From Arenibacter amylolyticus (GTDB lineage: Bacteria > Bacteroidota > Bacteroidia > Flavobacteriales > Flavobacteriaceae): a DNA stretch of 64,000 nt. Below are positions 3,269 through 59,986 of the stretch, in pieces. Made by a program: the position numbers and the translations under genes. Below the pieces are notes generated by a model that saw only the letters and a list, made by a program, of their open reading frames with translations, searched no databases and was not told where the DNA came from. The stretch spans positions 186,001-250,000 of the forward strand of contig NZ_MTAZ01000004.1 in NCBI RefSeq assembly GCF_002150785.1. Reading direction: 5' to 3'. Every line of letters begins with the position of its first letter. Within the stretch, counting starts at the first letter, position 1.

Positions 3269-4669
3269 CTATCGCCAGCCTCCACCAAGGGCCTCATACA
3301 GGGTCACAATGGCGTTTAGCCTACCAAATTGGGAGTCTATTAATCTCAGTTCGGAATTAAGCGCATTTTGTCTGGCGGTCAATACTTCCAAGTAATTGGC
3401 AAATCCGTTGTTCAATAGTTCTTCAGAATAGGTCTCTGCTAGTGTATAAGAGGCAAGTTCCTTTTTTCGGGCTTCAATTTTCTGGCTTTCGGCCTCATAG
3501 GTGTACAAAGCGTCCGAAACTTCTTTTCCCGCAATTAAGAGCGTTTTTTTAAAGTTTAGCAGGGCTTGTTCCTGTTGGGCCTGTGATACCTCGTACTGTG
3601 TTCTTATTCTTCTTCCGTTCAATAGCGGCTGTGCTAGGGATCCCGCTAAATTGGAGAATAGGGAGCTGGCACTGAATAAATTATCCAATTCAAGGCTTTG
3701 AAATCCTCCCGAAGCAGTGAGTCGCAAGGAAGGGAAAAATTGGCTCCTTGCCACATTGGTTAGTTCAAAAGCATTGATCAAGCTGTACTCGGCCGCCATA
3801 ACATCGGGTCTGTTAACCAATAGGTCTGCTGGGACGCCCGTGGTTAATGCCGTATTTATTTGCTGGTCTTCCAGGGTGCTTCTTACGACCGTTTGCCCCG
3901 CTTCGCCTAGGAGGATGGAGAAGGTATTCTCTAATAGTTTTATATCCTTTTCTAGGTCTATCAACAAAATCTCGGTAGTGTACAATTGCGCCTCCGTCTG
4001 TTTTACCGCCACTTCCGTTACCTGTCCGGCATCCTTAAGGGCTTGTGTAGTAGTAAGGCTACTTTTTCTAGACGCTATGGTTTCTTTTAGGAGGTCTTTT
4101 TGCCTATCCAAGGCCAAGAGTCTAAAGTAAGTGCTGCCAATGGCGGCTATCAGGTGTGTTTTTACTGCCTGGTGGGCTGCCACAGTTTGTAGGTAGGAGG
4201 CCTGGGCAGCTCTGTCCATACTTCTGATTTTACCCCAGATATCGGCTTCCCAAGAAAGAGAAGCAGCAAGCTGATACTGTTCCGAGGCAGATCCGCCATT
4301 CAATCCCATCGGCCCGTTTTCTGAAAAAGTAGATCGGCCATAGCTAGCGGAGGCATCCAGGGTAGGATAATAACCCGATTTTCCTTGTTTTAAATAAGCC
4401 TGTGCCGCCTGTATGTTCTGAAGTGCAACCCTAATATCCAGGTTGTTTTCTAACCCTTGGTGGATATAATCCGTTAAAATGGGATCGGTGAACAATTCGG
4501 TCCATGATACCGTGGCCATGCTGAGGCTATCGGTCATCACATAATCGGTACGGTACAATGCCTCGTTTTCCAAAGAAGGTCTAACATAATCCTTGGCAGA
4601 GAAACAAGATTGCATCAATATCGGAATTATGGTCAATAAGATCAGTCGGTACAAAGTGTTGTTTTGCAT
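3269..4669 (-). CDS. RND efflux outer-membrane channel (OprM/NodT family)
   Basis: 466-residue TolC-like lipoprotein. The signal peptide ends L-M-Q-S-C with Cys22 as the likely lipidated residue. The body shows the two homologous halves of outer-membrane efflux proteins: long alternating helices (DIRVALQNIQAAQAYLKQ, VTEVAVKQTEAQLYTTE) and the signature turn VPADLLVNRPDV, which is diagnostic of NodT/OprM-type lipoproteins. It is the last gene of the efflux operon, 11 bases after the RND pump, and would form the exit duct through the outer membrane. Confidence 0.95.
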   Translation of the reverse strand: MQNNTLYRLILLTIIPILMQSCFSAKDYVRPSLENEALYRTDYVMTDSLSMATVSWTELFTDPILTDYIHQGLENNLDIRVALQNIQAAQAYLKQGKSGYYPTLDASASYGRSTFSENGPMGLNGGSASEQYQLAASLSWEADIWGKIRSMDRAAQASYLQTVAAHQAVKTHLIAAIGSTYFRLLALDRQKDLLKETIASRKSSLTTTQALKDAGQVTEVAVKQTEAQLYTTEILLIDLEKDIKLLENTFSILLGEAGQTVVRSTLEDQQINTALTTGVPADLLVNRPDVMAAEYSLINAFELTNVARSQFFPSLRLTASGGFQSLELDNLFSASSLFSNLAGSLAQPLLNGRRIRTQYEVSQAQQEQALLNFKKTLLIAGKEVSDALYTYEAESQKIEARKKELASYTLAETYSEELLNNGFANYLEVLTARQNALNSELRLIDSQFGRLNAIVTLYEALGGGWR

Positions 4670-4680
4670 AATATCTTCTA

Positions 4681-7600
4681 CTAATTTTCTTCAATGGTTT
4701 CTTCTGTGGGAACTCCAGTAACTTTTTCTTGAAGCCACTGGAAAAGGATAAATAAGACGGGTATAATAAAAACCCCGACTACTGTTCCTACTAACATACC
4801 GCCAACGGCACCTGTACCAATGGCATTGTTACCTGCGGCCCCTACACCCCTTGCTACTACCAATGGCATAAGCCCAAGGATAAATGCAAAGGAGGTCATT
4901 AAAATAGGTCTTAATCGAGCTCTAGCTCCCTCTAAGGCCGCCTCGGTAATAGAGAGGCCCTGCCTTCTTCGTTGAATAGCAAATTCCACAATAAGAATGG
5001 CGTTTTTTGCCAATAGTCCTATCAGCATAATCAAGGCAATCTGGAAATAAATATTGTTTTCCAAACCAAGGAATTTGGTCGATAAATAGGCGCCCGCTAC
5101 CCCAACGGGGAGTGAGAATAAAACCGCAAATGGCAGTAGATAACTTTCGTATTGGGCAGATAAAAAGAAATACACGAATACAATACTGAGCAAAAAGATG
5201 ACTCCAGACTGGCCGGCCGAAGCTATTTCTTCCCGTGTAATTCCGGAAAACGCAATCTCGTAGTTTTGAGGTAGATTTTGTTCTGCCACCTCTGTCACGG
5301 CCTTAATTGCATCCCCCGAACTATATCCTGCTGCTGCTGATCCATTTATAGTTACAGAATTAAATAGGTTAAATCTACTCACCGTCTGTGGACCATAGAC
5401 CCTGCTCAGGGTTACAAATTGGGAGACCGGGGCCATTTCGCCATTGTTATTCCTAACAAACATGCTATTTAGGCTGTTTTCGTCTCTGCGGTCATCGGGT
5501 TTTGCTTGTACCATCACCCTAAACTGTTTTCCAAACCTACTAAAGTCGGCCGTGTACAAGCCACCTATATACCCTTGTAAGGTCCGCAGTATACTGCTTA
5601 TCTCTACCCCAGCTTCTTTGGCTTTCGGAATGTTGATATCCATCTGCAGCTGAGGAAAATCCGTACTAAAGGAATTAGAGGCATAGCCAATTTCCGAACG
5701 TTGGGTAAGGGCTGCGGCAAAATTGTTTGCTATAGTGTCCATGGACCTAAGGCTTCCTGCGGAGCGGTCCAAAATCTGTACCTCAAATCCGTCCGAAGCT
5801 CCAAAACCCGGGATGCTAGGAGGGGTGAAAAATATAATATTAGCATCTGTGATATGCCCTGTCTTGGCAAATAACTGTTGGATAATGGTTTCTATGGAGG
5901 TTTCATCAGTGGTTCGCTTATCAAAATCTTCTAGAAGGATAAAACCCATACCATAGGAGCTACCCGCTCCGGAGAAAAAGTTTCTTCCTCCTTGTATGGA
6001 AGCGGTTCTTACCCCTTCTATGCTTTCAATAGACTTATAGATTTCCTCGGTAATACTAAAGGTTCGGTCTAAGGAAGCGCCTTTAGGAAGCTCCATATTC
6101 ATAAAGATCACACCCCTGTCCTCAGAGGGTACAAAACCTGTAGGGGTAGTGTTGTTCGCCCACCATATGCCCGCTACAGATACAAGTAATATCACTACTG
6201 TAACCCAGCTGTTCTTTACTAAAAACCTTAGGGATTTAACGTATTTGTGCGTGGTGGCTTCAAAACCAGCGTTAAAGGCCGTATAAAATCTATTGATGAC
6301 GGTCTTTTTCTTTTCCCCTTCCTTTTTGGTGGGTTTAAGGAAGATGGCACATAGTGCCGGACTCAGGGTTAAGGCGTTCACCGCAGAAATAAGAATGGCG
6401 ATTAAAAGGGTAACCCCAAATTGTTCATAGAAAACCCCAGACGGTCCTTGGATAAAGGTAATGGGGATAAAAACCGCTGCCATTACCAAGGTAATAGAAA
6501 CAATGGCCCCGCTAATTTCGTTCATGGCGCTTAAGGAGGCCTTCTTTGCCGAGGTGTATCCATCCTCCAGTTTTGCATGTACCGCTTCTACAACCACAAT
6601 GGCATCATCCACAACAATCCCAATTGCCAAAAGAAGGGCAAATAGGGTAAGGAGGTTCAGGGAATAGCCTAAAAGGTTTAGGAAGAAAAACGTTCCTATA
6701 ATGGATACCGGCACCGCAATAGCGGGAATTAAGGTCGATTTAAAATCTTGAAGGAAGAGGAATACCACAAGGAAAACCAATAAAAACGCCTCAATTAAGG
6801 TTATCTGCACCTTAGTCATGGACGCTGTGAGGAATTTATTGGTATCGAAATTTACAATATAGTCCACCCCAGGAGGGAACCCCTCTTTTAGCTCATCCAT
6901 TTTCTCATAGATCTGCTCTATGATCTGTTGTGCATTGGAGCCTGGAGTTTGAAAAACCCCAAAGCCGACTCCGGGATAGCCCCTTGCGCGACCAATAGAG
7001 GTGTAGGAAAACGCATCTAATTCTACTTCGGCAACGTCACTTAGCTTTAGAAACTGACCATTTCCCAGCGATTTAATAATAATGTTCTGATATTCTTCGG
7101 CAGTCTTATAGCGCCCCTTGTACTTTATAACATACTCAAAGGATTCCCCAGAGTTTTGACCAAGGGATCCGGCAGCAGCTTCCAAACTTTGCTCTCCAAT
7201 GGCTTGGGTAACATCCGTTACGGTTAAATTATAAGAGGTTAGCTTTACGGGGTCTAACCATACGCGCATGGCATAGTCCTTTCCTCCAAAAACATTTACA
7301 TCCCCAACCCCTTTAATACGTTGTAACTCTGGCTTAACGTTAATATTGAGGTAGTTCTGTACAAAGGTATCGTCATAATCTGGATTGGTAGAGTATAGGG
7401 AGGCGTACATAAGCGCCGAGCTTTGTCGCTTTTGGGTAATCACTCCAGATCGGATTACTTCTGCAGGCAACAATGCATTGGCACGTGCAACCCGGTTTTG
7501 TACGTTCACCGCAGCAATATCGGGATCTACCCCTTGCTCAAAATACACGGTAATACTAGCACTACCGGTGTTACTGGCAGTAGAGGTAATATAGGTCATG

Positions 7601-7821
7601 TCCTCTACCCCGTTAATTTGCTCCTCAATGGGGACTATTACACTTTCCAGAATGGTTTCGGCATTGGCCCCTGGGTAACTAGCGGATACCTGTACGGTAG
7701 GTGGGGCAATATCCGGGTATTGGGTTACCGGTAAGGTAAGGAACCCCAATCCGCCTAGTAATAACAGAATAATGGATATAACGGTGGAAAGTACGGGCCT
7801 TTCTATGAATGTCTTTAGCAT
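4681..7821 (-). CDS. RND multidrug efflux transporter (HAE1/AcrB-like)
   Basis: 1046 residues, the normal length for AcrB/MexB. Twelve transmembrane helices are apparent: one at residues 10-30, two clusters of five or six after the porter loops. The proton-relay residues are present: the adjacent aspartates in the fourth helix (GIVVDDAIVVVEAV) and the lysine in the tenth (GLLAKNAILIVEFA). The N-terminus MLKTFIERPVLSTVIS is typical of HAE1 pumps, which export hydrophobic and amphiphilic compounds from the periplasm using proton import. It sits between adaptor and channel genes with gaps of 6 and 11 bases, so the tripartite pump is made from one transcript. Confidence 0.97.
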   Translation of the reverse strand: MLKTFIERPVLSTVISIILLLLGGLGFLTLPVTQYPDIAPPTVQVSASYPGANAETILESVIVPIEEQINGVEDMTYITSTASNTGSASITVYFEQGVDPDIAAVNVQNRVARANALLPAEVIRSGVITQKRQSSALMYASLYSTNPDYDDTFVQNYLNINVKPELQRIKGVGDVNVFGGKDYAMRVWLDPVKLTSYNLTVTDVTQAIGEQSLEAAAGSLGQNSGESFEYVIKYKGRYKTAEEYQNIIIKSLGNGQFLKLSDVAEVELDAFSYTSIGRARGYPGVGFGVFQTPGSNAQQIIEQIYEKMDELKEGFPPGVDYIVNFDTNKFLTASMTKVQITLIEAFLLVFLVVFLFLQDFKSTLIPAIAVPVSIIGTFFFLNLLGYSLNLLTLFALLLAIGIVVDDAIVVVEAVHAKLEDGYTSAKKASLSAMNEISGAIVSITLVMAAVFIPITFIQGPSGVFYEQFGVTLLIAILISAVNALTLSPALCAIFLKPTKKEGEKKKTVINRFYTAFNAGFEATTHKYVKSLRFLVKNSWVTVVILLVSVAGIWWANNTTPTGFVPSEDRGVIFMNMELPKGASLDRTFSITEEIYKSIESIEGVRTASIQGGRNFFSGAGSSYGMGFILLEDFDKRTTDETSIETIIQQLFAKTGHITDANIIFFTPPSIPGFGASDGFEVQILDRSAGSLRSMDTIANNFAAALTQRSEIGYASNSFSTDFPQLQMDINIPKAKEAGVEISSILRTLQGYIGGLYTADFSRFGKQFRVMVQAKPDDRRDENSLNSMFVRNNNGEMAPVSQFVTLSRVYGPQTVSRFNLFNSVTINGSAAAGYSSGDAIKAVTEVAEQNLPQNYEIAFSGITREEIASAGQSGVIFLLSIVFVYFFLSAQYESYLLPFAVLFSLPVGVAGAYLSTKFLGLENNIYFQIALIMLIGLLAKNAILIVEFAIQRRRQGLSITEAALEGARARLRPILMTSFAFILGLMPLVVARGVGAAGNNAIGTGAVGGMLVGTVVGVFIIPVLFILFQWLQEKVTGVPTEETIEEN

Positions 7822-7827
7822 ACTGAT

Positions 7828-8937
7828 TTATTTAAAAACAGGATTGTAAGAGTTTATAATGCTATCCAAACTGGTAGGTTGTGGAATAATCGGCAGTCCT
7901 GGTCTTACTTTGCCAAGTCCGTTCGCCAGTATCTGTACGCCTTCTTCCAATCCCTCAATAACCGATAAGCCATTAACGGCAGCCTTAACGGTCACCGATT
8001 TAGAGACCAGGGTATCGCCTTGAACCAGGTATACAAACTTTTTTCCCTGCTGTTCGTAGGTGGAAAGGGTGGGGATCACCAATACATCGTCCATTTTATT
8101 GGGTAGAATAATGCTACCGCTGTTACCGTTTCTTAAAAGACCTTGGGGGTTGGGAAAGGTGGCTCTAAAAGTAACCGTCCCGGTTTTAACATTGATCTCT
8201 CCGCTTATTGTTTCTACTTTTCCGGGATGTTCGTACAAAGAACCATCGGCGAGGATTAATTGCACTGGGGGTATGTTTTGTACTTTTTCTTCCATGGAAT
8301 TGCCTTCCAATTCCCGTAGGAAGCCTAATAGATCCCTTTCATTCATCGAGAAAAAGGCATATACGTTCTCTATACTGGATATAGTGGTCAAGGGCACGGC
8401 ATCTTGGGCACTTACCAAGTTTCCTTTCCTAAAGGGTATGGAGCCTACTACGCCGTTAACCGGACTTTTTATCTGTGCGTAATCTATGGACGCGGCTATG
8501 CTCTGATAATTGCTCTTGGCCTGCTCCAGATTGGCTATGGCCGTTTCTAGCTGTACTTTGCTTATTATATTCTTTTCTACCAAAGGACGTAATTTATCTA
8601 CTTCCACTTGGGCAGAATGTACCCTGGCTTGTGCCGCGGCGGCATCCTGGGTAAGGGTTTGGGTTTCCAAGGTAAACAGTAATTGTCCTTTTTTTACCCG
8701 CTCACCCTCATCTACCAATACATCTTGGATATAGCCAGCTACCTTTGCGCGTACCTTACTATTAATGGTACCCTCTATACTGGTGGGGTATTTGGTAAAA
8801 TTATCCACGGATCTTTTCGCTACCTTAATTGTAGGGTAGGGAGCTGCTTCTTGCGAGCGAACCGAAGGTGCCTTTTCTCCACAGCCGCTGAACAAGGTGA
8901 TGCTGAGGACTAGGGTTGCAATTAGTGATCTTTTCAT
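7828..8937 (-). CDS. RND efflux periplasmic adaptor (membrane fusion protein)
   Basis: 369-residue lipoprotein with lipobox L-F-S-G-C (Cys19). The order is that of AcrA-type adaptors: a lipoyl half-domain (VRAKVAGYIQDVLVDEGERVKKGQ), a short coiled-coil hairpin with DAAAAQARVHSAQVEVDKL and QLETAIANLEQAKSNY arms, the second lipoyl half (IKSPVNGVVG), a beta-barrel domain, and a membrane-proximal domain. It links the inner-membrane pump to the outer channel. Its ATG overlaps the stop of the upstream regulator by four bases. Confidence 0.96.
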   Translation of the reverse strand: MKRSLIATLVLSITLFSGCGEKAPSVRSQEAAPYPTIKVAKRSVDNFTKYPTSIEGTINSKVRAKVAGYIQDVLVDEGERVKKGQLLFTLETQTLTQDAAAAQARVHSAQVEVDKLRPLVEKNIISKVQLETAIANLEQAKSNYQSIAASIDYAQIKSPVNGVVGSIPFRKGNLVSAQDAVPLTTISSIENVYAFFSMNERDLLGFLRELEGNSMEEKVQNIPPVQLILADGSLYEHPGKVETISGEINVKTGTVTFRATFPNPQGLLRNGNSGSIILPNKMDDVLVIPTLSTYEQQGKKFVYLVQGDTLVSKSVTVKAAVNGLSVIEGLEEGVQILANGLGKVRPGLPIIPQPTSLDSIINSYNPVFK

Positions 8938-12914: not shown

Positions 12915-14696
12915 TTAAATTTGTTTGTCTAATTGTGAAATAACCTCGCTGGCTTTGTCGTAGTCTTGTTGCATTTGCACTTCGGTAGATGGGCTGTACC
13001 TAGCCATTTCACAGCTTTTCAACAGTCCGATAAATCCGTCCTTAGTAAGCTCGTCTACCTTCTTCTCTTCTAATAAGGTGGCAATTTTCTCCTTACTGAA
13101 CTCCGAGGTTTCTATCTTTAATTTCGCCTTTAAATAATTATGTAGCGCTTTTTCTAAGGCAACATAGAACGACTCCTTGGAGCCTTGGGCTTTTTTGGCG
13201 GCAGAAAGATACTTTCTGGCAAGTCTGTTTGCTCTTTTAATTTTATTGCCTTCCACGTCACTAGTGATGGCCTCCCGTCTTTTTCCAAAAATGATGGCCA
13301 ACGGTATAAGGGATAAGGGGAGCAGCCACCACATAAAAAAGGCGGTAGATCCAAAGAAGGAGCGGGTGCTTATAGCGGTTAGATTGGGGGTTAATTTGTT
13401 AAAGACAAATTGATCAGATGCTGCTACCACAAGCTGTCTGCTTCCAATACTAGGTGCCTCTGCAGTGATGGCTCCGCTAGTGGGGCCCTCCAGCACATTA
13501 ATCATGGCCTCTTCTGAATTTAAGGTGTAGTATCTTTCGGTCTTGGGGTTAAAATAACTGAAGGAGATACTCGGAATGGGGTATTTACCCCTATAGGTAG
13601 GTACCACCGTATAGCTGTTTACTACCTCTCCTTCCATGCCAGATAATCTAGTGCGTATATTCTCAGTGTATTCCGGATCGTATACCTCCAGAGAGCTGGG
13701 GAGGTTTAATTGGGGAATTTCAAAGAGTTTTAAATTTCCCTTTCCTTTTATAGTGACTGTCGTTTGTAGGGATTCTGAGGCGTTTAAATGGGTTTTGCTC
13801 GGGGTCACAAAAAAATCGAACTCTCCTACAGCACCACTGAAACCTGCTGGTTTGCCTTCTGTTGGAAGCGGTTTTACCTGCAGGGTTCTTCTTCCAGCAG
13901 AGACCGTTTTGTTGGCTTGTGCCATTACCCTTCCTCCAAAAAAATCGCGTTTATTGGTAGGTACCTGTAGACTAACGTCTAGGGAAAGAGGCTCTAACTC
14001 CAATTCCCCTTCTCGTTGGGGATAGAGTACTACTCTTTTTAGGATTACGGACCTATAGGGCTTTCCATCGTAGGTGGTGTTTTCTATGGTGTATTTAGTA
14101 ACGGGGATATCCTGACTCCAAAAGTTATTGTACCTCGGATTGTCCAAAGCCCTAAAGTTGGTTACGTCTACATGTGGGCTGGCGTAAAGCTTGTAAACCA
14201 CGGTAACAGCCTCATTGAGATAGGGGTTGGTTTTAGAGATTTCTGCAACTAAATGCAAGCTCTCATCCGCTACGTCGTCTATGGTTTTTTCTCCGGATGG
14301 CCGGTCTACAGCTGCGGTTACCTCTACCTCCTTAGGCAAGGATTTGTAAGTAGTGCCATCTATGTCTATGGTGGCCTGGGAGATAGTGAATTTTCCCCTG
14401 GCCGTTGGGGCCAAGGTATAGCTGTAGGTTTTGGAAAAACTTCTTACCCCGTTCACCCATGAAGAGCTAATAGATTGAGAAGGTCCCATGACAATTCTGA
14501 AGCCGTTAAAATCTGGCGGACTAAAATTATCGCCGTCCTTGTTCATAGTAAAATCTACCCGAAGCCTTTCGTTAATGCCCAGCTTATCCTTGCTGAGTTC
14601 CATTTTAAAAGTAACCGAATCATCATCGTTCTGGGCATTAAGCGTACTGGCCAGGAACAATATTGCTATAATCGATATGTATCTTTTTAGTTCCAC
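12915..14696 (-). CDS. batD: BatD: oxygen-tolerance membrane protein
   Basis: 593 residues: signal peptide (to about residue 21), several immunoglobulin-like beta domains in the periplasm, a single transmembrane helix near residues 445-465, then a basic cytoplasmic helical region ending in the LLKSCEMARYSP and YDKASEVISQL segments. This is the BatD layout. It lies between batC (4-base gap) and batE (3-base gap). In Bacteroides the bat cluster affects survival in air, and in other bacteria stress tolerance; the molecular job of BatD is unknown. Confidence 0.93.
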   Translation of the reverse strand: MELKRYISIIAILFLASTLNAQNDDDSVTFKMELSKDKLGINERLRVDFTMNKDGDNFSPPDFNGFRIVMGPSQSISSSWVNGVRSFSKTYSYTLAPTARGKFTISQATIDIDGTTYKSLPKEVEVTAAVDRPSGEKTIDDVADESLHLVAEISKTNPYLNEAVTVVYKLYASPHVDVTNFRALDNPRYNNFWSQDIPVTKYTIENTTYDGKPYRSVILKRVVLYPQREGELELEPLSLDVSLQVPTNKRDFFGGRVMAQANKTVSAGRRTLQVKPLPTEGKPAGFSGAVGEFDFFVTPSKTHLNASESLQTTVTIKGKGNLKLFEIPQLNLPSSLEVYDPEYTENIRTRLSGMEGEVVNSYTVVPTYRGKYPIPSISFSYFNPKTERYYTLNSEEAMINVLEGPTSGAITAEAPSIGSRQLVVAASDQFVFNKLTPNLTAISTRSFFGSTAFFMWWLLPLSLIPLAIIFGKRREAITSDVEGNKIKRANRLARKYLSAAKKAQGSKESFYVALEKALHNYLKAKLKIETSEFSKEKIATLLEEKKVDELTKDGFIGLLKSCEMARYSPSTEVQMQQDYDKASEVISQLDKQI

Positions 14697-14700
14697 TGTT

Positions 14701-15555
14701 CTACCAATCTTTTTCGTTCTTAATTTTAGGTCCTTTTATTTTTTTGGCATCTATCTTTTCCTGAACTTTCTTTTCTTCGTTCTGCATGGCCTCCAACAAG
14801 CTTCTTACCTGCTGTTGAGATAATTGGTTGGGTCTTGGTTGAGGTTGCTCCTGCTGATCTCCGTCTTTGGGCTGCTGATCCTCTTGTTCCTTTTCATTAC
14901 CATCCCCATCTTTCTCATCTTTGTTTCCTTCATCGCCCTGCTCCCCATCTTCCTTGTTCTGATCCTGATTGTCTTGTTGATCGTTCTTATCCTCTTGGTC
15001 TTGCTCTCCCTCTTGCTTATCCTGATTCTGATCTTGTTGGTCCTTGTTGTCTTCCTGGTCCTGATCGTCCTGATCTGGATTGTTTTTCTGCTCTTCCTGT
15101 TGCTTTTTCAGCATCTCCTTAGCCAGCGCAAAATTATATCGGGTCTCCTCATCGGTAGGATCGTTGCGCAACGCCTCCTTGTAGGCTTCTACCGCTTTCT
15201 GGTATTCCTTGTTCTTCATAAACACGTTCCCCATATTGTGGAATGCCCTATGCTTATCTGCCTTGCTGGAGGCATTTTCGGCGGCTTGCTTAAACCTGCC
15301 AAAGGCTTCCGTGAAGGTTTCGTTCTGGTAATAGGCATTACCCAGGTTGTACGGGGCTACACTGTTGTTAGCATTTTCGGAAATAGCTTTTCTGTAATTT
15401 GCCTCCGCGTTTACAAAATCCTCCTCCTCCAAATGCTGATTGCCCAACCAGGTATAGTTGGTTGCTTTGTTGATGGATTTTAGGGTTTCCTTATCCACCT
15501 CCTGTGCATGGCCAAGAAACCCGAACAATATAATAAGAGCTACTATCCTTTTCAT
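14701..15555 (-). CDS. batC: BatC: TPR protein with very acidic Gln/Asp tail
   Basis: 284 residues from the ATG at 15555, which opens a proper signal peptide (MKRIVALIILFGFLGHAQ); the frame runs nine codons further up, into the end of batB, but that would bury the signal. Three TPR motifs lie at about residues 35-145 (YNLGNAYYQNETFTEAFGRF; HNMGNVFMKNKEYQKAVEAYKEAL). A low-complexity region of about 85 residues rich in D, Q, E, N and K follows, with repeated DQ(D/E/N) units, then a short basic C-terminal helix. The tail probably is disordered and extends into the periplasm. Confidence 0.92.
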   Translation of the reverse strand: MKRIVALIILFGFLGHAQEVDKETLKSINKATNYTWLGNQHLEEEDFVNAEANYRKAISENANNSVAPYNLGNAYYQNETFTEAFGRFKQAAENASSKADKHRAFHNMGNVFMKNKEYQKAVEAYKEALRNDPTDEETRYNFALAKEMLKKQQEEQKNNPDQDDQDQEDNKDQQDQNQDKQEGEQDQEDKNDQQDNQDQNKEDGEQGDEGNKDEKDGDGNEKEQEDQQPKDGDQQEQPQPRPNQLSQQQVRSLLEAMQNEEKKVQEKIDAKKIKGPKIKNEKDW

Positions 15556-15565
15556 ATTCCTTGGT

Positions 15566-16609
15566 TTATACTTCCTTCTCATTAAATAGGTTCAACTTTT
15601 TTAGCCACTTGGTTTTTCTATCCAATACAAAGATGTCTAAAAATAGAAATAAAAGCCCTGCTCCCAAAAACCATTGAAATTGATCTTGGTATTCGGCAAA
15701 CTGCTTGGCTTCAAATTCTGTCTTATCTATGCGGTCTAATTGATCTTTTATGAAGGTAACAGCTTCCTTGGTGTTTTCTCCGTTGATATATGATCCGTTG
15801 CCTTGCTCGGCAATATCCTGCAAAGTCTGTTCATTCATTTTGGTAATGACCACTTCTCCTTCTCGGTCTCTTAAAAAACGTTCTACAACCCCGTTTTTCT
15901 TAATGGGGATTGGGCTTCCTTTGGTGCTTCCTACGCCAATTGTAAAAATCCGAATGTTCTCTTTCTCTGCATCGGCTACACTGTTAGAAATATTCCCTTC
16001 GGAATGATCCTCCCCATCAGAAATTATAAATAGCACCCTATTGGTCTCTTCCCCATCATCGTAATAGGTAGTGGCCAAATTAACGGCTTGGTCAATGGCG
16101 GTCCCTTGGGAAGAAAGCATGTTGGTGTTCATGTTTTGTAGGAACATTTTTGCTGCCCCATAATCCGTGGTAAGGGGTAATTGCGGATATGCCTGTCCTG
16201 CATAGGCTATAATCCCGATACGATCACCTGCCAATTGATTGATGATTTCGGACACCAAGCGTTTTGCCTTGTCCAATCTATTGGGAGCAATGTCCTCGGC
16301 TAGCATACTTTTAGAAACATCTACTGCAAAGACTATATCTAGGCCCTCCCTTTTTACGGTTTCCAATTTGGTGCCCATTTTGGGGTTCACCAGTGCTAGC
16401 GTTAAAAAAGCAATTCCAAGTAGGAGGAGAATCAGTTTTAATGTGGCCTTAAAATTGGATTTGTCCGGCGTTAATCGTCTTAGAAGGGAAAGGTCTGCAA
16501 ATTTTCTTTGCGTCCTTCTTTTCCAAATTTGCAACAATACAAATAGTACGATCATCACCGGGATGATGAACAACAGGTATAAATATGTTTTTTCGTCTAA
16601 TTGAATCAT
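15566..16609 (-). CDS. batB: BatB: von Willebrand factor A domain membrane protein
   Basis: 347 residues with two N-terminal transmembrane helices (about 8-28 and 57-76), a VWA domain and a C-terminal transmembrane helix. The metal-ion-dependent adhesion site is intact: D-V-S-K-S-M-L near residue 95 with the later T-A-I-D and S-D-G-E-D motifs. BatA and BatB are paralogous and are thought to form a membrane complex acted on by the MoxR ATPase at the head of the operon. Spacing to batC is 10 bases and to batA 54 bases. Confidence 0.94.
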   Translation of the reverse strand: MIQLDEKTYLYLLFIIPVMIVLFVLLQIWKRRTQRKFADLSLLRRLTPDKSNFKATLKLILLLLGIAFLTLALVNPKMGTKLETVKREGLDIVFAVDVSKSMLAEDIAPNRLDKAKRLVSEIINQLAGDRIGIIAYAGQAYPQLPLTTDYGAAKMFLQNMNTNMLSSQGTAIDQAVNLATTYYDDGEETNRVLFIISDGEDHSEGNISNSVADAEKENIRIFTIGVGSTKGSPIPIKKNGVVERFLRDREGEVVITKMNEQTLQDIAEQGNGSYINGENTKEAVTFIKDQLDRIDKTEFEAKQFAEYQDQFQWFLGAGLLFLFLDIFVLDRKTKWLKKLNLFNEKEV

Positions 16610-16663
16610 TTTTCTTTCTTCATTTCTAAGGATTAAGGTAGAGGGGGTTGCTTAGGCCAATGG

Positions 16664-17662
16664 CTAAATAAAACTCCTGAACAAGGTAATCCTTGTCAGC
16701 CACTCCAATAAAAGCAACGCTCCTGCCAAATATACCCAAGGTCTAAATTTCTCCTCGTATTTATAGTAGGTAAACTCCTCTATATCCGTTTTTTCCAACT
16801 TGTTTATTTCATCGTAAATGGCCTCCAACTTCTTATTGTCCGTCGCCCTAAAGTATTTCCCCCCGGTAGTCTCGGCAATGGATTGTAAAAGGGCCTCGTC
16901 TATTTCCACGGCTTCCATGGCATATCTAAAAGTGCCATCGGCATTGTAGGCCACGGGGGATAGGGCATTGCCGTTGGTCCCTATGGCTATGGTATAGGTT
17001 TTTATTCCAAATTCTACTGCAAGGTCGGCCGCCGTTTGTGGTTCAATAAAACCAGTATTATTTACTCCGTCGGTAAGTAGTATAATTACCTTGCTTAAGG
17101 CCTTGCTGTCTTTAAGTCTGTTTACTGCGGTTGCTAGGCCTAGGCCAATAGCGGTACCGTCATCTACTTGCCCGTAGGTGATTTCCTTTAATGCCTTTTG
17201 TACAATGGCCTTGTCACTTGTGATAGGGGTCTTGGTATAGCTTTCCCCAGCATATACCACCAATCCAATTCGGTCATTGGGCCGTTTGTCAATAAATTCT
17301 GCCGCTACCTTTTTTAGGGCTACCAACCTGTTGGGTTTTAGATCTTGTGCCAACATACTGGACGATACGTCTATAGACATTACTATGTCTATCCCTTGGG
17401 TGGTCTTGGTCCTAGTAGAGATATCCTCGGTCTGTGGTCTGGCCATGGCCACGATAATCGCGGCTAGGGCCAATAAGCGCATTGCAAACAAGAGGGGCTT
17501 TAATTTTGGCAGCAGGCTCGATTTAGGGAAACCCTCTATGCTCGATATTTTAAGGGAGGCGGTTTGCTCCTTTCGTTTTAGAAAATACCATAGCACCGCC
17601 ACTGGCAGCAAAAGTAAGAGCCAGAAAAACTGTGGGTTTGCAAAGTAGATATTCTCAAACAT
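16664..17662 (-). CDS. batA: BatA: von Willebrand factor A domain membrane protein
   Basis: 332 residues, N-terminal hydrophobic helices at about 10-28 and 58-75, VWA domain with an intact MIDAS (I-D-V-S-S-S-M-L), the T-A-I-G-L-G loop and the L-L-T-D-G-V-N-N strand, and a last transmembrane helix (WVYLAGALLLLEWL). The paralogue of BatB next door. It begins one base before the stop of the preceding gene, so coupling is likely. The domain is exposed to the periplasm by topology. Confidence 0.94.
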   Translation of the reverse strand: MFENIYFANPQFFWLLLLLPVAVLWYFLKRKEQTASLKISSIEGFPKSSLLPKLKPLLFAMRLLALAAIIVAMARPQTEDISTRTKTTQGIDIVMSIDVSSSMLAQDLKPNRLVALKKVAAEFIDKRPNDRIGLVVYAGESYTKTPITSDKAIVQKALKEITYGQVDDGTAIGLGLATAVNRLKDSKALSKVIILLTDGVNNTGFIEPQTAADLAVEFGIKTYTIAIGTNGNALSPVAYNADGTFRYAMEAVEIDEALLQSIAETTGGKYFRATDNKKLEAIYDEINKLEKTDIEEFTYYKYEEKFRPWVYLAGALLLLEWLTRITLFRSFI

Positions 17663-55133: not shown

Positions 55134-55160
55134 GAAATCACAAAGGTTTAATAATTTTAA

Positions 55161-55194
55161 AAGGGGCTGTCCGTTTGGACGGTCCCTTTTTTTT
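55161..55194 (+). terminator. Terminator after DUF4382 gene
   Basis: Stem AAGGGGCTGTCC / GGACGGTCCCTTT with a GTTT loop and G-U pairs, followed by eight T, 27 bases after the stop. Confidence 0.9.
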
Positions 55195-55340
55195 ATTCGC
55201 ATCAGATTGAAGGCGATAAGAATTGGATTTTTAATAAAACGACCAGAAAGGAGGTTCATTTAGTTTGATGAAAAACCAAGTGGAATGATAAAAGATTTTT
55301 TTACCGGGGCTAAGATGGGTAAAAATTTGTATAGATTTAG

Positions 55341-55381: not shown

Positions 55382-58300
55382 ATGAAGTTTGCAGAATATA
55401 AGGGATTGGATTTGCCCAAAGTGGCAGAAGAGATATTGAACTACTGGAAAGAGAACGCCATTTTTGAAAAAAGTGTTTCCTCTCGGGAAGGTAAAGAGAG
55501 CTTTGTCTTTTACGAAGGTCCCCCGTCTGCCAACGGTTTGCCAGGGATACACCATGTAATGGCCCGTACCATAAAAGATATCTTCCCAAGATATAAGACC
55601 ATGAAAGGCTTCCAGGTAAAGCGAAAAGCTGGTTGGGATACCCACGGTTTGCCTATAGAATTGGGTGTTGAAAAGGAATTAGGGATTACCAAGGAGGATA
55701 TTGGGACCAAGATTTCGGTGGCAGAATATAACGCAGCTTGTAAGAAGGCCGTAATGCGCTATACGGATGTATGGAATTCCATGACCGAAAAAGTAGGGTA
55801 TTGGGTAGATATGGAGGATCCTTATGTTACCTATAAATCCAAATACATGGAGTCTGTTTGGTGGTTGCTTAAGCAGATTTACGATAAAGGGCTTATTTAC
55901 AAAGGATATACCATTCAGCCCTATTCCCCCAAAGCAGGGACCGGCTTAAGTTCGCACGAGCTCAATCAGCCTGGAACCTACCAAGATGTTACTGATACTA
56001 CAGTAGTGGCCCAGTTTAAGGTGAAAAAAGACTCCTTGAACGGTGTTTTTAAAGGTTTGGAGAACGAGATATTTTTTTTGGCGTGGACTACCACTCCATG
56101 GACCTTACCTTCTAATACGGCGCTTACCGTAGGTCCCAAGATAGATTATGTGGCGGTTAAAACTTTTAACCAATACACTTTTGAGCCTATGACGGTGGTT
56201 TTGGCCAAATCCTTGATAGGAAAACAGTTTACCGGTAAGTACTACCTTGCGGAAAGTGAGGCAGACCTGGCCAACTATACTTCCAAGGACAAGAAAATTC
56301 CGTATCAGATCGTTGATGAGGTGAAAGGAGCCGATTTAGTAGGGATTCGATATGAGCAGCTATTAGACTACGCGCAGCCCTATCAGCATCCGGAAAATGC
56401 CTTTAGGGTAATTTCGGGCGATTTTGTTACTACGGAAGACGGTACCGGAATTGTGCATACCGCACCTACCTTTGGTGCAGATGATGCCCTTGTAGCCAAG
56501 CAGGCAGAACCAGAGGTGCCACCTATGTTGGTGTTAGATGAGAATAACAATCCTGTGCCCCTGGTAGATCTACAAGGAAAATTCCGCCCAGAACTTCAAG
56601 AGCTGGCCGGAAAATATGTGAAGAACGAATATTATGAGGATGGTGAGGCGCCCGAAAGGTCTGTAGACGTGGAGATCGCCATCAAACTAAAAGAAGATAA
56701 CAGGGCATTTAAGGTAGAGAAATATGTGCATAGCTACCCCAACTGCTGGCGTACCGATAAGCCTATTCTGTATTACCCATTAGATTCTTGGTTCATAAAA
56801 ATTACCGAGGTAAAAGATAAAATGTTCAGCCTTAACCAGACTATTAATTGGAAGCCTAAGGCTACCGGAGAAGGCAGGTTTGGAAATTGGTTGGCAAATG
56901 CAAATGATTGGAACCTTTCTCGTTCGAGGTATTGGGGGATTCCCCTGCCTATTTGGCGTACCGAGGATGGCTCGGAGCAACGCATCGTTGGTTCTGTGGC
57001 AGAGCTTAAGGAAGAAATGCAGAAAGCGGTGAAAGCCGGATTCCTAGAGGAAGATATCTTTAAGGACTTTGTAGTTGGGGATATGTCCGAGGAGAACTAC
57101 GAAAAAATAGATCTACATAAAAACATTGTGGATGGGATTACCCTAGTTTCCGATTCTGGAAAACCTATGAAACGCGAAAGTGACCTTATAGATGTGTGGT
57201 TCGATAGTGGATCCATGCCCTATGCACAATGGCATTACCCCTTCGAAAATAAGGAATTGATAGATCAAGGGACTACATTTCCTGCCGATTTTATTGCTGA
57301 GGGAGTAGACCAGACCAGAGGGTGGTTCTATACCCTGCACGCCATTGCTGCAATGGTGTTCGACTCCGTGGCCTACAAAAACGTGGTTTCTAACGGGCTG
57401 GTGCTAGATAAAGAGGGAAAGAAAATGTCTAAGCGTCTTGGGAATGCAGTAGACCCATTTGAGACGATGGACGAGTTTGGACCCGATGCCACTCGTTGGT
57501 ATATGATCTCCAATGCCAATCCGTGGGATAACTTAAAATTTGATGTGGAAGGGATTGCGGAAGTGAAAAGAAAGTTCTTTGGAACACTCTACAATACCTA
57601 CTCCTTCTTTGCTTTATACACCAATATTGACCAATTTGATTATTCGGAAGACGATGTGCCGTTGGAAGAGCGACCAGAGATAGATCAGTGGATTTTGTCC
57701 GAATTGCATTCGCTGATCAAGACCGTAGACGAGGCGTATGGCGATTATGAGCCTACAAGGGCAACAAGGGCCATTTCCAATTATGTGCAGGAACACCTCA
57801 GTAACTGGTATGTTCGCCTAAGTAGAAGACGTTTCTGGAAAGGGGATTATCAGCGCGATAAAATATCCGCTTATCAAACCCTGTATACCTGTTTGGAAAC
57901 AGTGGCAAAATTGTCTGCACCTGTAGCGCCATTTTATATGGACCGACTCTATAAGGATTTGACCAATACCACCAAAAAGGAACCTTTTGAAAGCGTTCAT
58001 TTGGCCGATTTTCCAAAGTACGATCCAGCAATGGTGAATAAAGAGTTGGAGAGCAAGATGGATAAAGCCCAAGTAATCTCCTCTTTGGTATTGTCTATTA
58101 GGCAAAGAGAGAAAATTAAGGTGCGTCAACCCCTGCAAAAAATTATGATTCCTGTGCTGGACGAAAACCAGAGAAGGGAAGTGGAAGCAGTGGCAGAGTT
58201 GATTAAATCTGAGGTTAATGTTAAGGAAATAGAGCTGTTGGACGATGCTTCCGGAATTTTGGTGAAGCAAATAAAACCCAATTTTAAAACTTTGGGGCCA

Positions 58301-58783
58301 AGGTATGGCAAGGATATGAAGCAAATAGCTGCGGAGGTTGCCAAGCTAGATCAAGAAGATATCTTGAAAATTGAACAAGAAGGCGAAATTAATCTGCAGA
58401 TTAATAATAAAAGTGTTACTTTACAGCTTGAGGATGTAGAAATATCCTCTCAAGATATTGAAGGTTGGTTAGTGGCAAGTTCAGGCTCCATCACAGTAGC
58501 TTTGGACGTATCCATTAATGAGAACCTTAAAAAGGAAGGTATCGCTAGAGAACTGGTGAATAGGATTCAGAACCTTAGAAAGGATTCTGGATTTGAGGTA
58601 ACGGATAAAATAAATGTTACCCTGTTAAAAAATGGTTTTGTTGAGGAGGCTGTGGATAGTAATATGGCCTATATTAAGTCCGAGACCTTAACAGCAGAGC
58701 TAAATTTTGTAGAAAGCTTGGAGAACGGTGTAGAGATAGCTTTCGATGAAATAAATACGAGATTATTCATTGTAAAACATTAG
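55382..58783 (+). CDS. ileS: Isoleucine--tRNA ligase, eukaryote-like type with GIHH signature
   Basis: 1133 residues, longer than E. coli IleRS (938) and matching the IleRS2 (eukaryote-like) class. The Rossmann signature is G55-I56-H57-H58 in NGLPGIHHVMA, where H-x-G-H is usual. The second signature is K-M-S-K-R in EGKKMSKRLGNAVDP, with Arg in place of Ser, known in IleRS2. The editing (CP1) domain around 190-400 includes W-T-T-T-P-W-T-L-P-S-N. The C-terminal half has the anticodon-binding helices. First gene of ileS-dksA-like-lspA. Confidence 0.97.
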   Translation: MKFAEYKGLDLPKVAEEILNYWKENAIFEKSVSSREGKESFVFYEGPPSANGLPGIHHVMARTIKDIFPRYKTMKGFQVKRKAGWDTHGLPIELGVEKELGITKEDIGTKISVAEYNAACKKAVMRYTDVWNSMTEKVGYWVDMEDPYVTYKSKYMESVWWLLKQIYDKGLIYKGYTIQPYSPKAGTGLSSHELNQPGTYQDVTDTTVVAQFKVKKDSLNGVFKGLENEIFFLAWTTTPWTLPSNTALTVGPKIDYVAVKTFNQYTFEPMTVVLAKSLIGKQFTGKYYLAESEADLANYTSKDKKIPYQIVDEVKGADLVGIRYEQLLDYAQPYQHPENAFRVISGDFVTTEDGTGIVHTAPTFGADDALVAKQAEPEVPPMLVLDENNNPVPLVDLQGKFRPELQELAGKYVKNEYYEDGEAPERSVDVEIAIKLKEDNRAFKVEKYVHSYPNCWRTDKPILYYPLDSWFIKITEVKDKMFSLNQTINWKPKATGEGRFGNWLANANDWNLSRSRYWGIPLPIWRTEDGSEQRIVGSVAELKEEMQKAVKAGFLEEDIFKDFVVGDMSEENYEKIDLHKNIVDGITLVSDSGKPMKRESDLIDVWFDSGSMPYAQWHYPFENKELIDQGTTFPADFIAEGVDQTRGWFYTLHAIAAMVFDSVAYKNVVSNGLVLDKEGKKMSKRLGNAVDPFETMDEFGPDATRWYMISNANPWDNLKFDVEGIAEVKRKFFGTLYNTYSFFALYTNIDQFDYSEDDVPLEERPEIDQWILSELHSLIKTVDEAYGDYEPTRATRAISNYVQEHLSNWYVRLSRRRFWKGDYQRDKISAYQTLYTCLETVAKLSAPVAPFYMDRLYKDLTNTTKKEPFESVHLADFPKYDPAMVNKELESKMDKAQVISSLVLSIRQREKIKVRQPLQKIMIPVLDENQRREVEAVAELIKSEVNVKEIELLDDASGILVKQIKPNFKTLGPRYGKDMKQIAAEVAKLDQEDILKIEQEGEINLQINNKSVTLQLEDVEISSQDIEGWLVASSGSITVALDVSINENLKKEGIARELVNRIQNLRKDSGFEVTDKINVTLLKNGFVEEAVDSNMAYIKSETLTAELNFVESLENGVEIAFDEINTRLFIVKH

Positions 58784-58787
58784 TATT

Positions 58788-59171
58788 ATGGCCGAAGATT
58801 TAAAAGTAAGATACTCAGATAAGGATTTAAGCGAATTTAAAGCCTTGATAGAGGAGAAGATCGAAAAAGCAAAAAGTCACCTAGAGCTTCTTAAAAGTTC
58901 ATATATGAATGATGGGAATAATGGTACGGATGATACCTCGCCCACCTTCAAAGCTTTTGAGGAAGGTTCGGAGACCATGAGTAAAGAAGCAAATACCCAA
59001 TTGGCAATCCGTCAGGAGAAGTTTATTAGGGATTTGAAGAACGCCTTACTGCGTATAGAAAACAAAACCTATGGCGTATGTCGTGTTACAGGGAAATTAA
59101 TTAATAAGGAGCGACTAAAGCTTGTGCCGCATGCCACCCTGAGCATCGAGGCAAAAAACATGCAAACCTAA
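58788..59171 (+). CDS. DksA/TraR-family protein lacking most zinc cysteines
   Basis: 127 residues. The long helical hairpin at about 12-95 and the C-terminal YGVCRVTGKLINKERL / VPHATLSIEAK ending are those of DksA/TraR proteins, but of the four zinc-binding cysteines only Cys98 remains. The coiled-coil tip includes D-D at 48-49. DksA binds RNA polymerase through its secondary channel and acts with ppGpp; whether this zinc-free variant does so is unknown. It begins four bases after ileS and ends in a strong terminator. Confidence 0.88.
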   Translation: MAEDLKVRYSDKDLSEFKALIEEKIEKAKSHLELLKSSYMNDGNNGTDDTSPTFKAFEEGSETMSKEANTQLAIRQEKFIRDLKNALLRIENKTYGVCRVTGKLINKERLKLVPHATLSIEAKNMQT

Positions 59172-59335: not shown

Positions 59336-59986
59336 ATGAATTTAAAAAAATCGCTTATCATTATTCTCCTGATCCTCTTGGTAGACCAGGTGAGTAAATT
59401 CTATATTAAAACCAGCTTTATGTTGGGAGAATCGGTAGAAGTTTTTAGCTGGTTCAAAATTTTGTTCATAGAGAATGAAGGGGCCGCTTGGGGCACCAAG
59501 CTAAGCGATATCCTGCCTATTTCCGATAGGGCAGGGAAACTAGTACTCACAATTTTCAGGCTTTTTGCAATTGTAGGGATTGGCTATTGGTTGTTAGATA
59601 CCATTAAGAAACACGCCTCCAAAACCCTAATCATAGCAGTATCCTTAATATTTGCCGGAGCGTTGGGGAATATCATAGATTCCGTATTTTACGGAGTAAT
59701 CTTTGATCATAGTTATTCTCAGGTGGCTACTGCCTTTGCAGCAGAGCCCTATGGGAGTATTTTTCACGGGAAGGTGGTAGATATGCTATACTTTCCAATG
59801 ATAGACACGGTGTGGCCATCCTGGGTCCCTGTAATTGGAGGGAATACCTTCCGCTTCTTTGAGCCGGTGTTTAACATTGCGGATATGGCTATTAGTACTG
59901 GAGTCGGAATTCTGATCGTCTTCAATAAAAAAGCCTTCGGACCCTCTCCGGAAGAGGCTAAAACGAATAAATCCGCTCAGGAGTAA
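59336..59986 (+). CDS. lspA: Lipoprotein signal peptidase (signal peptidase II)
   Basis: 216 residues, about 50 longer than E. coli LspA. The aspartyl dyad is D115 in G-N-I-I-D and D183 in F-N-I-A-D; N-E-G-A-A-W-G is the conserved third block. The extra residues form a periplasmic insertion at about 118-175 between the catalytic aspartates (VIFDHSYSQV ... PSWVPVIGGN). Four transmembrane helices are present. It cleaves prolipoproteins, of which this window encodes many. Its 3' end overlaps the convergent gene by 29 bases. Confidence 0.95.
   Translation: MNLKKSLIIILLILLVDQVSKFYIKTSFMLGESVEVFSWFKILFIENEGAAWGTKLSDILPISDRAGKLVLTIFRLFAIVGIGYWLLDTIKKHASKTLIIAVSLIFAGALGNIIDSVFYGVIFDHSYSQVATAFAAEPYGSIFHGKVVDMLYFPMIDTVWPSWVPVIGGNTFRFFEPVFNIADMAISTGVGILIVFNKKAFGPSPEEAKTNKSAQE

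What the first reader, a model, noticed from the sequence alone, without database searches (positions are those of the whole stretch)
55544..55555. IleRS with a rearranged class I signature, GIHH instead of HXGH
The residues at 55-58 of the synthetase are G-I-H-H, while class I enzymes carry H-x-G-H. Established knowledge: in some eukaryote-like bacterial IleRS2 enzymes the first and third positions are exchanged (GXHH), and this is reported to give extreme resistance to mupirocin without loss of catalysis. The rest of the enzyme (KMSKR, extended C-terminus) is IleRS2. I infer that this organism's only IleRS seen here would be naturally insensitive to mupirocin.
Basis: partly seen in the sequence, partly recalled or inferred. 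Interest (0 to 1): 0.75.

Follow-up and report, generated by a model that had tools for sequence, protein, structure and literature searches.

The report
Isoleucyl-tRNA synthetase with swapped signature motif
This bacterium's only isoleucine-charging enzyme carries a known swapped active-site motif (GIHH instead of HxGH) that in related enzymes keeps out the antibiotic mupirocin; the swap is not a local oddity but was found in every relative read from the same phylum.

Summary
ORF 55382-58783 (+) encodes a 1133-aa isoleucyl-tRNA synthetase. Residues 55-58 (nt 55544-55555) are GIHH and align without a gap with the HVGH of crystallised Priestia megaterium IleRS2 and with a GVHH form of it (8c8w). 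No HxGH occurs in the protein. It is an IleRS2 (HYPFE present, NKIL absent, 799.6 bits against solved IleRS2 versus 318.8 against solved IleRS1) and the only IleRS found in a 99.96%-complete genome, whose ValRS, LeuRS and MetRS keep canonical motifs.

The exchanged G/AxHH motif and the mM-range mupirocin Ki it brings are published (PMC10485003). What I add is distribution: 158 of 158 sampled genomes of the phylum, and 76 of 76 further genomes of the class in which the motif could be read, have G(I/V/M)HH and none HxGH. So the motif is the ordinary, probably inherited state of the phylum, and the gene stands in the usual ileS-traR/dksA-lspA order; it is not an acquired resistance gene. The text of two key IleRS papers contains no word beginning 'Bacteroid'.

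Mupirocin insensitivity of this enzyme is a strong inference, not a measurement. New member of a known kind; low interest apart from the phylum-wide fixation.

The parts
55382..58783 (+). ileS, isoleucyl-tRNA synthetase type 2, 1133 aa
   Evidence: ORF; TIGR00392 1004.4 bits against cut-off 621.4; best PDB relatives 8c8w, 8c8u, 8c8v, 8c9d
55544..55555 (+). class I signature in exchanged form, GIHH (residues 55-58)
57233..57247 (+). HYPFE, mark of eukaryote-like IleRS (residues 618-622)
   Evidence: the mark is described in PMC4861432 (passages)
57422..57436 (+). second class I signature, KMSKR (residues 681-685)
57683..58141 (+). anticodon-binding domain, PF08264 (residues 768-920)
58196..58777 (+). 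C-terminal domain PF19302/DUF5915 (residues 939-1132)
   Evidence: no cysteine in the last 60 residues
58788..59171 (+). TraR/DksA-type protein downstream of ileS, 127 aa
   Evidence: PF01258; same gene order in other Bacteroidota
59336..59986 (+). lspA, signal peptidase II
   Evidence: PF01252

Best explanation
This is the housekeeping and only IleRS found in a Bacteroidota bacterium, of type 2, with the class I signature in the exchanged form G-x-H-H. Shown here: sequence, alignment, type, single copy, and the same motif in every relative read of the phylum. Inferred from the published work on other IleRS2: the third-position histidine (His57) does the job of the usual first histidine in stabilising the transition state of isoleucine activation, because in IleRS2 the tip of the motif helix is shifted and leaves room for it beside the adenine. 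The same side chain clashes with bound mupirocin, so the enzyme should have a Ki of tenths of mM or more and the organism should be insensitive to mupirocin at the target. Also inferred: the motif was fixed before the phylum diversified and has been inherited vertically, not acquired lately as a resistance gene.
For: Motif and register. IleRS2 type: 799.6 bits for IleRS2 8c8w against 318.8 for the best-scoring chain of the IleRS1 kind, 1ffy (that 1ffy is S. aureus IleRS1 is recalled); HYPFE present, NKIL absent; DUF5915 C-terminus. Single copy. Canonical motifs in ValRS, LeuRS and MetRS of the same genome. Phylum sample: 158 of 158 genomes GxHH (114 GIHH, 43 GVHH, 1 GMHH); class: 76 further genomes read, all GIHH. 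Named Bacteroidota (7) and Ignavibacteriota (4) loci all GxHH, as are the ileS of Parabacteroides, Bacteroides, Riemerella and Prevotella records. Tree made without the motif residues: window inside a starred branch of 45 rows, all GxHH. Mechanism and Ki: PMC10485003.
Against: No kinetic or MIC value for this enzyme or for any Bacteroidota IleRS was found. Engineered GVHH forms of P. megaterium and T. thermophilus IleRS2 reached only 460 and 35 uM, not mM, and lost activity, so the backbone matters and the exact Ki here cannot be predicted. I did not model the structure. A culture study (passages) predicted from a model that mupirocin (5 ug/ml in its media) increased the diversity of Bacteroidaceae recovered; that fits but is indirect.
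Confidence: 0.9

Rival explanations
1. The exchange has nothing to do with antibiotics: it is a neutral or catalytic alternative of IleRS2 that was fixed early and kept because going back is hard, and insensitivity to mupirocin is a by-product. (A rival about origin, not about present mechanism.)
For: Found in 234 of 234 genomes read across the phylum, with no intermediate; a direct change needs at least four nucleotide changes (inference from the codons). The natural ALHH enzyme of D. radiodurans is as efficient as canonical IleRS2.
Against: The published authors presume selection by environmental antibiotic, though they show resistance, not selection. A reversion in Deinococcus-Thermus is reported, so going back is possible. 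Sequence data here cannot tell the two apart.
Confidence: 0.45
2. The gene is an acquired, plasmid-type mupirocin resistance gene (mupA/mupB-like).
For: It scores against the NCBIfam MupA and MupB models (744.5 and 767.4 bits), and plasmid records hold ileS genes.
Against: Far below those models' cut-offs of 1900 bits. Housekeeping neighbours, the same gene order in other Bacteroidota, GC of the gene 43.0% against 42.4% of the window, no other IleRS found in the genome, placement among Bacteroidota in the tree.
Confidence: 0.01
3. GIHH is an error of sequencing or assembly, or the gene is dead.
For: It departs from the textbook class I signature.
Against: Full-length open frame, only IleRS of a nearly complete genome; the same motif class in every relative read.
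Confidence: 0.002

Closest known systems
G/AxHH IleRS2 of Streptomyces griseus and Deinococcus radiodurans (PMC10485003)
   Same: IleRS2 with first and third positions of the signature exchanged; mupirocin Ki in the mM range for those two
   Different: Bacteroidota enzyme; GIHH rather than ALHH (Dr); no kinetics known
Priestia megaterium IleRS2 (PDB 8c8u, 8c8v, 8c8w, 8c9d)
   Same: Same type, best PDB matches over nearly the full length; 8c8w carries GVHH at the same place
   Different: The natural Pm enzyme is HVGH and stands beside an IleRS1 in its host
MupA/MupB, acquired mupirocin-resistant IleRS of staphylococci
   Same: IleRS2 type
   Different: Acquired on plasmids; the window gene is the sole housekeeping copy and scores far under their cut-offs
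IleRS1, as of E. coli and Staphylococcus aureus
   Same: Same reaction and class I fold
   Different: Canonical HxGH, zinc-binding C-terminus, sensitive to mupirocin; the GxHH change abolishes activity in E. coli and P. megaterium IleRS1

Membership tests
Isoleucine--tRNA ligase (TIGR00392) | Score over the curated cut-off | tested here: met
   1004.4 bits against 621.4
IleRS type 2 (eukaryote-like) | HYPFE present; IleRS1 mark NKIL absent (marks from PMC4861432) | tested here: met
   HYPFE at 618, no NKIL anywhere. Control: the exact string HYPFE was found in the fetched stretches of 175 of 214 genomes, not in 39; some stretches are partial, so the mark may vary or be unread there
IleRS type 2 (eukaryote-like) | IleRS1 mark Tyr59 absent | tested here: met
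   Ser49 in GPPS; placed by the GPPx context, the E. coli context being recalled
IleRS type 2 (eukaryote-like) | IleRS1 mark SSL (E. coli 572) absent | not tested
   The place of SSL was not located by an alignment
IleRS type 2 (eukaryote-like) | No Cys4 zinc cluster at the C-terminus | tested here: met
   0 Cys in the last 60 residues; no zinc-finger family among the four Pfam matches; PF19302 at 939-1132
IleRS type 2 (eukaryote-like) | Closer to solved IleRS2 than to IleRS1 | tested here: met
   799.6 against 318.8 bits
G/AxHH ('non-canonical') IleRS2 | Gly or Ala at position 1 and His at positions 3 and 4 of the class I signature | tested here: met
   GIHH, gapless alignment to HVGH and GVHH of PmIleRS2
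G/AxHH ('non-canonical') IleRS2 | Mupirocin Ki in the mM range | not testable with these tools
   Needs the purified enzyme
Target-based intrinsic resistance through a sole IleRS2 | No other IleRS in the genome | tested here: met
   One match over the cut-off in a 99.96%-complete genome
MupA/MupB | Score over the curated cut-off of 1900 bits | tested here: not met
   744.5 and 767.4 bits

The most novel reading that the evidence does not exclude
The exchanged signature is fixed in the whole phylum Bacteroidota as the tool's GTDB groups define it (Ignavibacteria-type kin included), in single-copy housekeeping IleRS. A whole phylum, gut Bacteroidales and Prevotella-type bacteria included, would then be hyper-resistant to mupirocin at the target by descent.
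Probability: 0.78. Interest if true: 0.4.

Novelty: new member of a known kind. Interest (0 to 1): 0.27.

Why it matters
The class I signature HxGH is one of the most conserved motifs of its enzyme class, and the authors of PMC10485003 say that its exchanged form in IleRS2 was not recognised before their 2023 study. If the exchange is the fixed state of a large phylum, it can be a stable housekeeping solution over deep time. It also predicts which bacteria mupirocin-type drugs cannot hit at the target, and warns that resistome surveys which call such ileS genes 'mupirocin resistance genes' may be counting ordinary housekeeping genes (inference).

Tried and rejected
A GLHH seemed to show in the genome's LeuRS when I read motifs through alignment columns. 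Reading the raw protein gave PYPSGAGLHVGH, a canonical motif: an artefact of dropped insert residues.

Plasmid-database ileS in Bacteroidota looked like second copies. In the four records I opened (of nine Bacteroidota rows listed) the neighbours are housekeeping genes in the usual order, so the smaller ones are probably chromosome pieces labelled as plasmids; whether those strains hold another ileS was not checked.

Two matches in one genome: 11 of 296 in the class sample resolved to pieces of one gene, split by the search, by a contig end or by a frame break. In the phylum sample 22 of 158 had two matches; 8 were followed and resolved the same way. For the other 14 I have only the full-length open frame round the listed piece and the motif read in the same stretch. 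Not all first-look candidates were scored, so a remote second copy is not excluded by them.

Six class genomes had no match at the limit. With a looser limit G374 has a 900-aa frame over the cut-off, G213 a 166-aa piece, G194 and G233 only ValRS-like matches, and G223 and G302 none: most likely assembly gaps.

Number of origins: parsimony needs 3 changes on the 99-row tree and starred branches force only 1. The AU test on 99 rows did not finish. On 43 hand-picked rows with a simpler model the tree needs 2 changes and a single GxHH side is not rejected (p 0.214). So I cannot confirm the published 'at least twice'.

Rfam gathering search of the window: 0 matches, so no T-box was seen. Literature searches for mupirocin susceptibility of Bacteroidota or for IleRS inhibitors in marine settings gave no direct value in what I looked at; these were listings, and I saw passages of only two of the papers. 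No structure was predicted: solved homologues settle the register and a model would not give a Ki.

Full report
What was checked. The ORF at 55382-58783 on the + strand is 1133 aa long. Window 55544-55555 translates to GIHH, residues 55-58. A phmmer search of the PDB puts P. megaterium IleRS2 first (8c8w 799.6 bits, 8c8u 794.8, 8c8v 793.1, 8c9d 788.1). In the three alignments printed the motif lines up without gaps with HVGH in 8c8u and 8c8v and with GVHH in 8c8w. The listing says only 'Isoleucine--tRNA ligase'; that these chains are the P. megaterium enzymes of PMC10485003, and 8c8w its exchanged mutant, I take from the sequences shown and the paper's description. The window protein holds no H-x-G-H anywhere.

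Type of enzyme. TIGR00392 scores 1004.4 bits against a cut-off of 621.4. It is IleRS2: HYPFE at residue 618, no NKIL, Ser49 where E. coli IleRS1 has Tyr59 (placed by the GPPx context), no cysteine in the last 60 residues (the marks are those named in PMC4861432, passages seen), and a C-terminal PF19302 domain with no zinc-finger family reported. A further IleRS1 mark, SSL, was not tested. As a control, the exact string HYPFE turned up in the fetched stretches of 175 of 214 genomes and not in 39; some stretches are partial and some relatives may vary. The residue at the place of the mupirocin-stacking Phe586 of P. megaterium IleRS1 (His582 in its IleRS2) is Leu673; I placed it by counting back from KMSKS, not from a structure. 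The second signature is KMSKR (nt 57422-57436), which does not define IleRS2: among 175 loci of the phylum (some genomes counted more than once) KMSKS was seen in 116, KMSKR in 40, KMSKT in 9, KMAKS in 2, and 8 were not read.

Only copy. The window lies in a genome of 3,985,366 bases in 101 contigs, 99.96% complete. TIGR00392 finds one match over the cut-off, the window gene; the other eight listed places score 20.8-220.3 bits. Seven of them lie in three genes that NCBIfam names ValRS, LeuRS and MetRS, each over its cut-off, and I read their motifs as VLHMGH, GLHVGH and PIHIGH, all canonical. The eighth, on contig C69, was not identified. Within this genome the exchange is thus absent from the three other class I synthetases that I read.

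Distribution in the phylum. A protein search of 158 genomes of the phylum, at least 90% complete, found a match to the window enzyme at E <= 1e-60 in 158 of 158. I fetched the gene and read the motif in all 158: 114 GIHH, 43 GVHH, 1 GMHH. In the class, a TIGR00392 search of 296 genomes found a match at E <= 1e-100 in 290. 262 of these 296 were not in the phylum sample, and I looked at 80 of the 262: 25 from the best-scoring loci, 17 odd cases, and 37 picked by me across families (20, 17 of 18 chosen likewise; the eighteenth brings the sum to 80). In 76 the motif was read, all GIHH; in four (G194, G233, G223, G302) no ileS was found in the assembly. In total 234 of 234 genomes in which the motif could be read have GxHH and none has HxGH; 182 of the 262 class genomes were not read.

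Beyond the phylum. Three lack the N-terminus. Of the 77 readable, 36 have GxHH and 41 HxGH (counted). GxHH: 7 Bacteroidota, 4 Ignavibacteriota, and members of Cloacimonadota, Acidobacteriota, Caldisericota, Chloroflexota, Actinomycetota, Poribacteria, some Clostridia and Bacilli, and one MAG labelled Oceanococcus. HxGH: Lachnospiraceae, Oscillospiraceae and other Clostridia, Paenibacillus, one Neomarinimicrobiota, and two MAGs labelled only 'bacterium'. On a 99-row tree built without the four motif residues the label is strongly clustered: 3 changes against a mean of 32.3 in shuffles. The window sits in a starred branch of 45 rows that are all GxHH. Only one change is forced by starred branches, and a one-side test on 43 hand-picked rows does not reject a single origin (p 0.214). 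PMC10485003 reports GxHH at two distant nodes, hence at least two acquisitions, and a reversion in Deinococcus-Thermus. My layout resembles theirs but cannot settle the number, and as the root is not inferred it does not show direction.

Setting. ileS is followed by a TraR/DksA-type gene and lspA. Annotated records of Parabacteroides, Bacteroides and Riemerella show the same order, and Prevotella the same with a gene annotated as hypothetical in the middle; their ileS all read GIHH. GC of the gene is near that of the window (43.0% and 42.4%). Nothing seen points to recent transfer.

How it most likely works. Shown here: sequence, register, type, single copy, and the same motif in all relatives read. 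Inferred from PMC10485003 (abstract; passages; Results parts 1 and 2 of 3; Discussion; figures and supplements not seen): His57 replaces the first His in catalysis, the shifted helix tip of IleRS2 makes room for it, and it clashes with mupirocin. Published Ki values are 6.6 mM for natural ALHH of D. radiodurans, 8.1 uM after change to HVGH in that enzyme, 0.20 and 1.08 uM for natural HVGH IleRS2, 35 and 460 uM for engineered GVHH, and 0.29 nM for P. megaterium IleRS1. For the window enzyme I expect tenths of mM or more. At the level of the cell, uptake and efflux (an RND-type system lies in this window at 3269-8937) may add to it, so an MIC alone would not prove the target effect.

What is known and what is new. 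The exchanged motif, its effect and its restriction to IleRS2 are known since 2023. A whole-word search for GXHH in the held library gives 3 papers, of which only that one is on this subject. The main text of PMC10485003 and of PMC4861432 holds no word beginning 'Bacteroid'; figures and supplements may name the phylum. The phylum-wide state is therefore, as far as these searches show, not spelled out in the text of those two papers, but it is a modest extension. One resistome paper counts a 'Bifidobacteria intrinsic ileS' as a mupirocin resistance gene (PMC7877042, passages); ordinary Bacteroidota ileS genes may be drawn into such counts (inference, not tested).

Reading the last two genomes of the phylum sample and 18 more of the class raised the count from 214 to 234 without an exception; I raised the probability of the phylum-wide reading from 0.75 to 0.78 for that reason. 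I withdrew the statement that SSL is absent, which had not been tested at its proper place.

Noticed in passing
58788-59171 (+): The TraR/DksA-type protein after ileS has a single cysteine in its whole sequence, so it cannot form the C4 zinc finger of the family it matches (PF01258).
   Followed up: no
L188, L189, L190, L191: Plasmid-database records of Parabacteroides, Bacteroides, Riemerella and Prevotella hold the housekeeping ileS-lspA stretch; the smaller ones look like chromosome pieces labelled as plasmids.
   Followed up: partly
3269-8937 (-): RND-type efflux set: outer membrane factor, AcrB-type pump, membrane-fusion protein.
   Followed up: no
12915-17662 (-): Neighbouring genes with BatA/VWA, VWA, TPR and BatD domains, like the Bat (aerotolerance) operon of Bacteroidota (operon name recalled).
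   Followed up: no
55160-55199: Inverted repeat followed by a run of T between the upstream gene and ileS, seen by eye: looks like an intrinsic terminator.
   Followed up: no
L306/L326 (G246), L307/L319 (G206), L352 (G067): IleRS frames broken by stop codons or a frame break in three surveyed genomes, each the only copy seen there; probably sequencing errors, but recoding was not excluded.
   Followed up: no
L256: A MAG contig labelled Oceanococcus (Pseudomonadota) carries a GVHH IleRS2 that falls among Bacteroidota-type rows in the tree: binning error or gene transfer.
   Followed up: no
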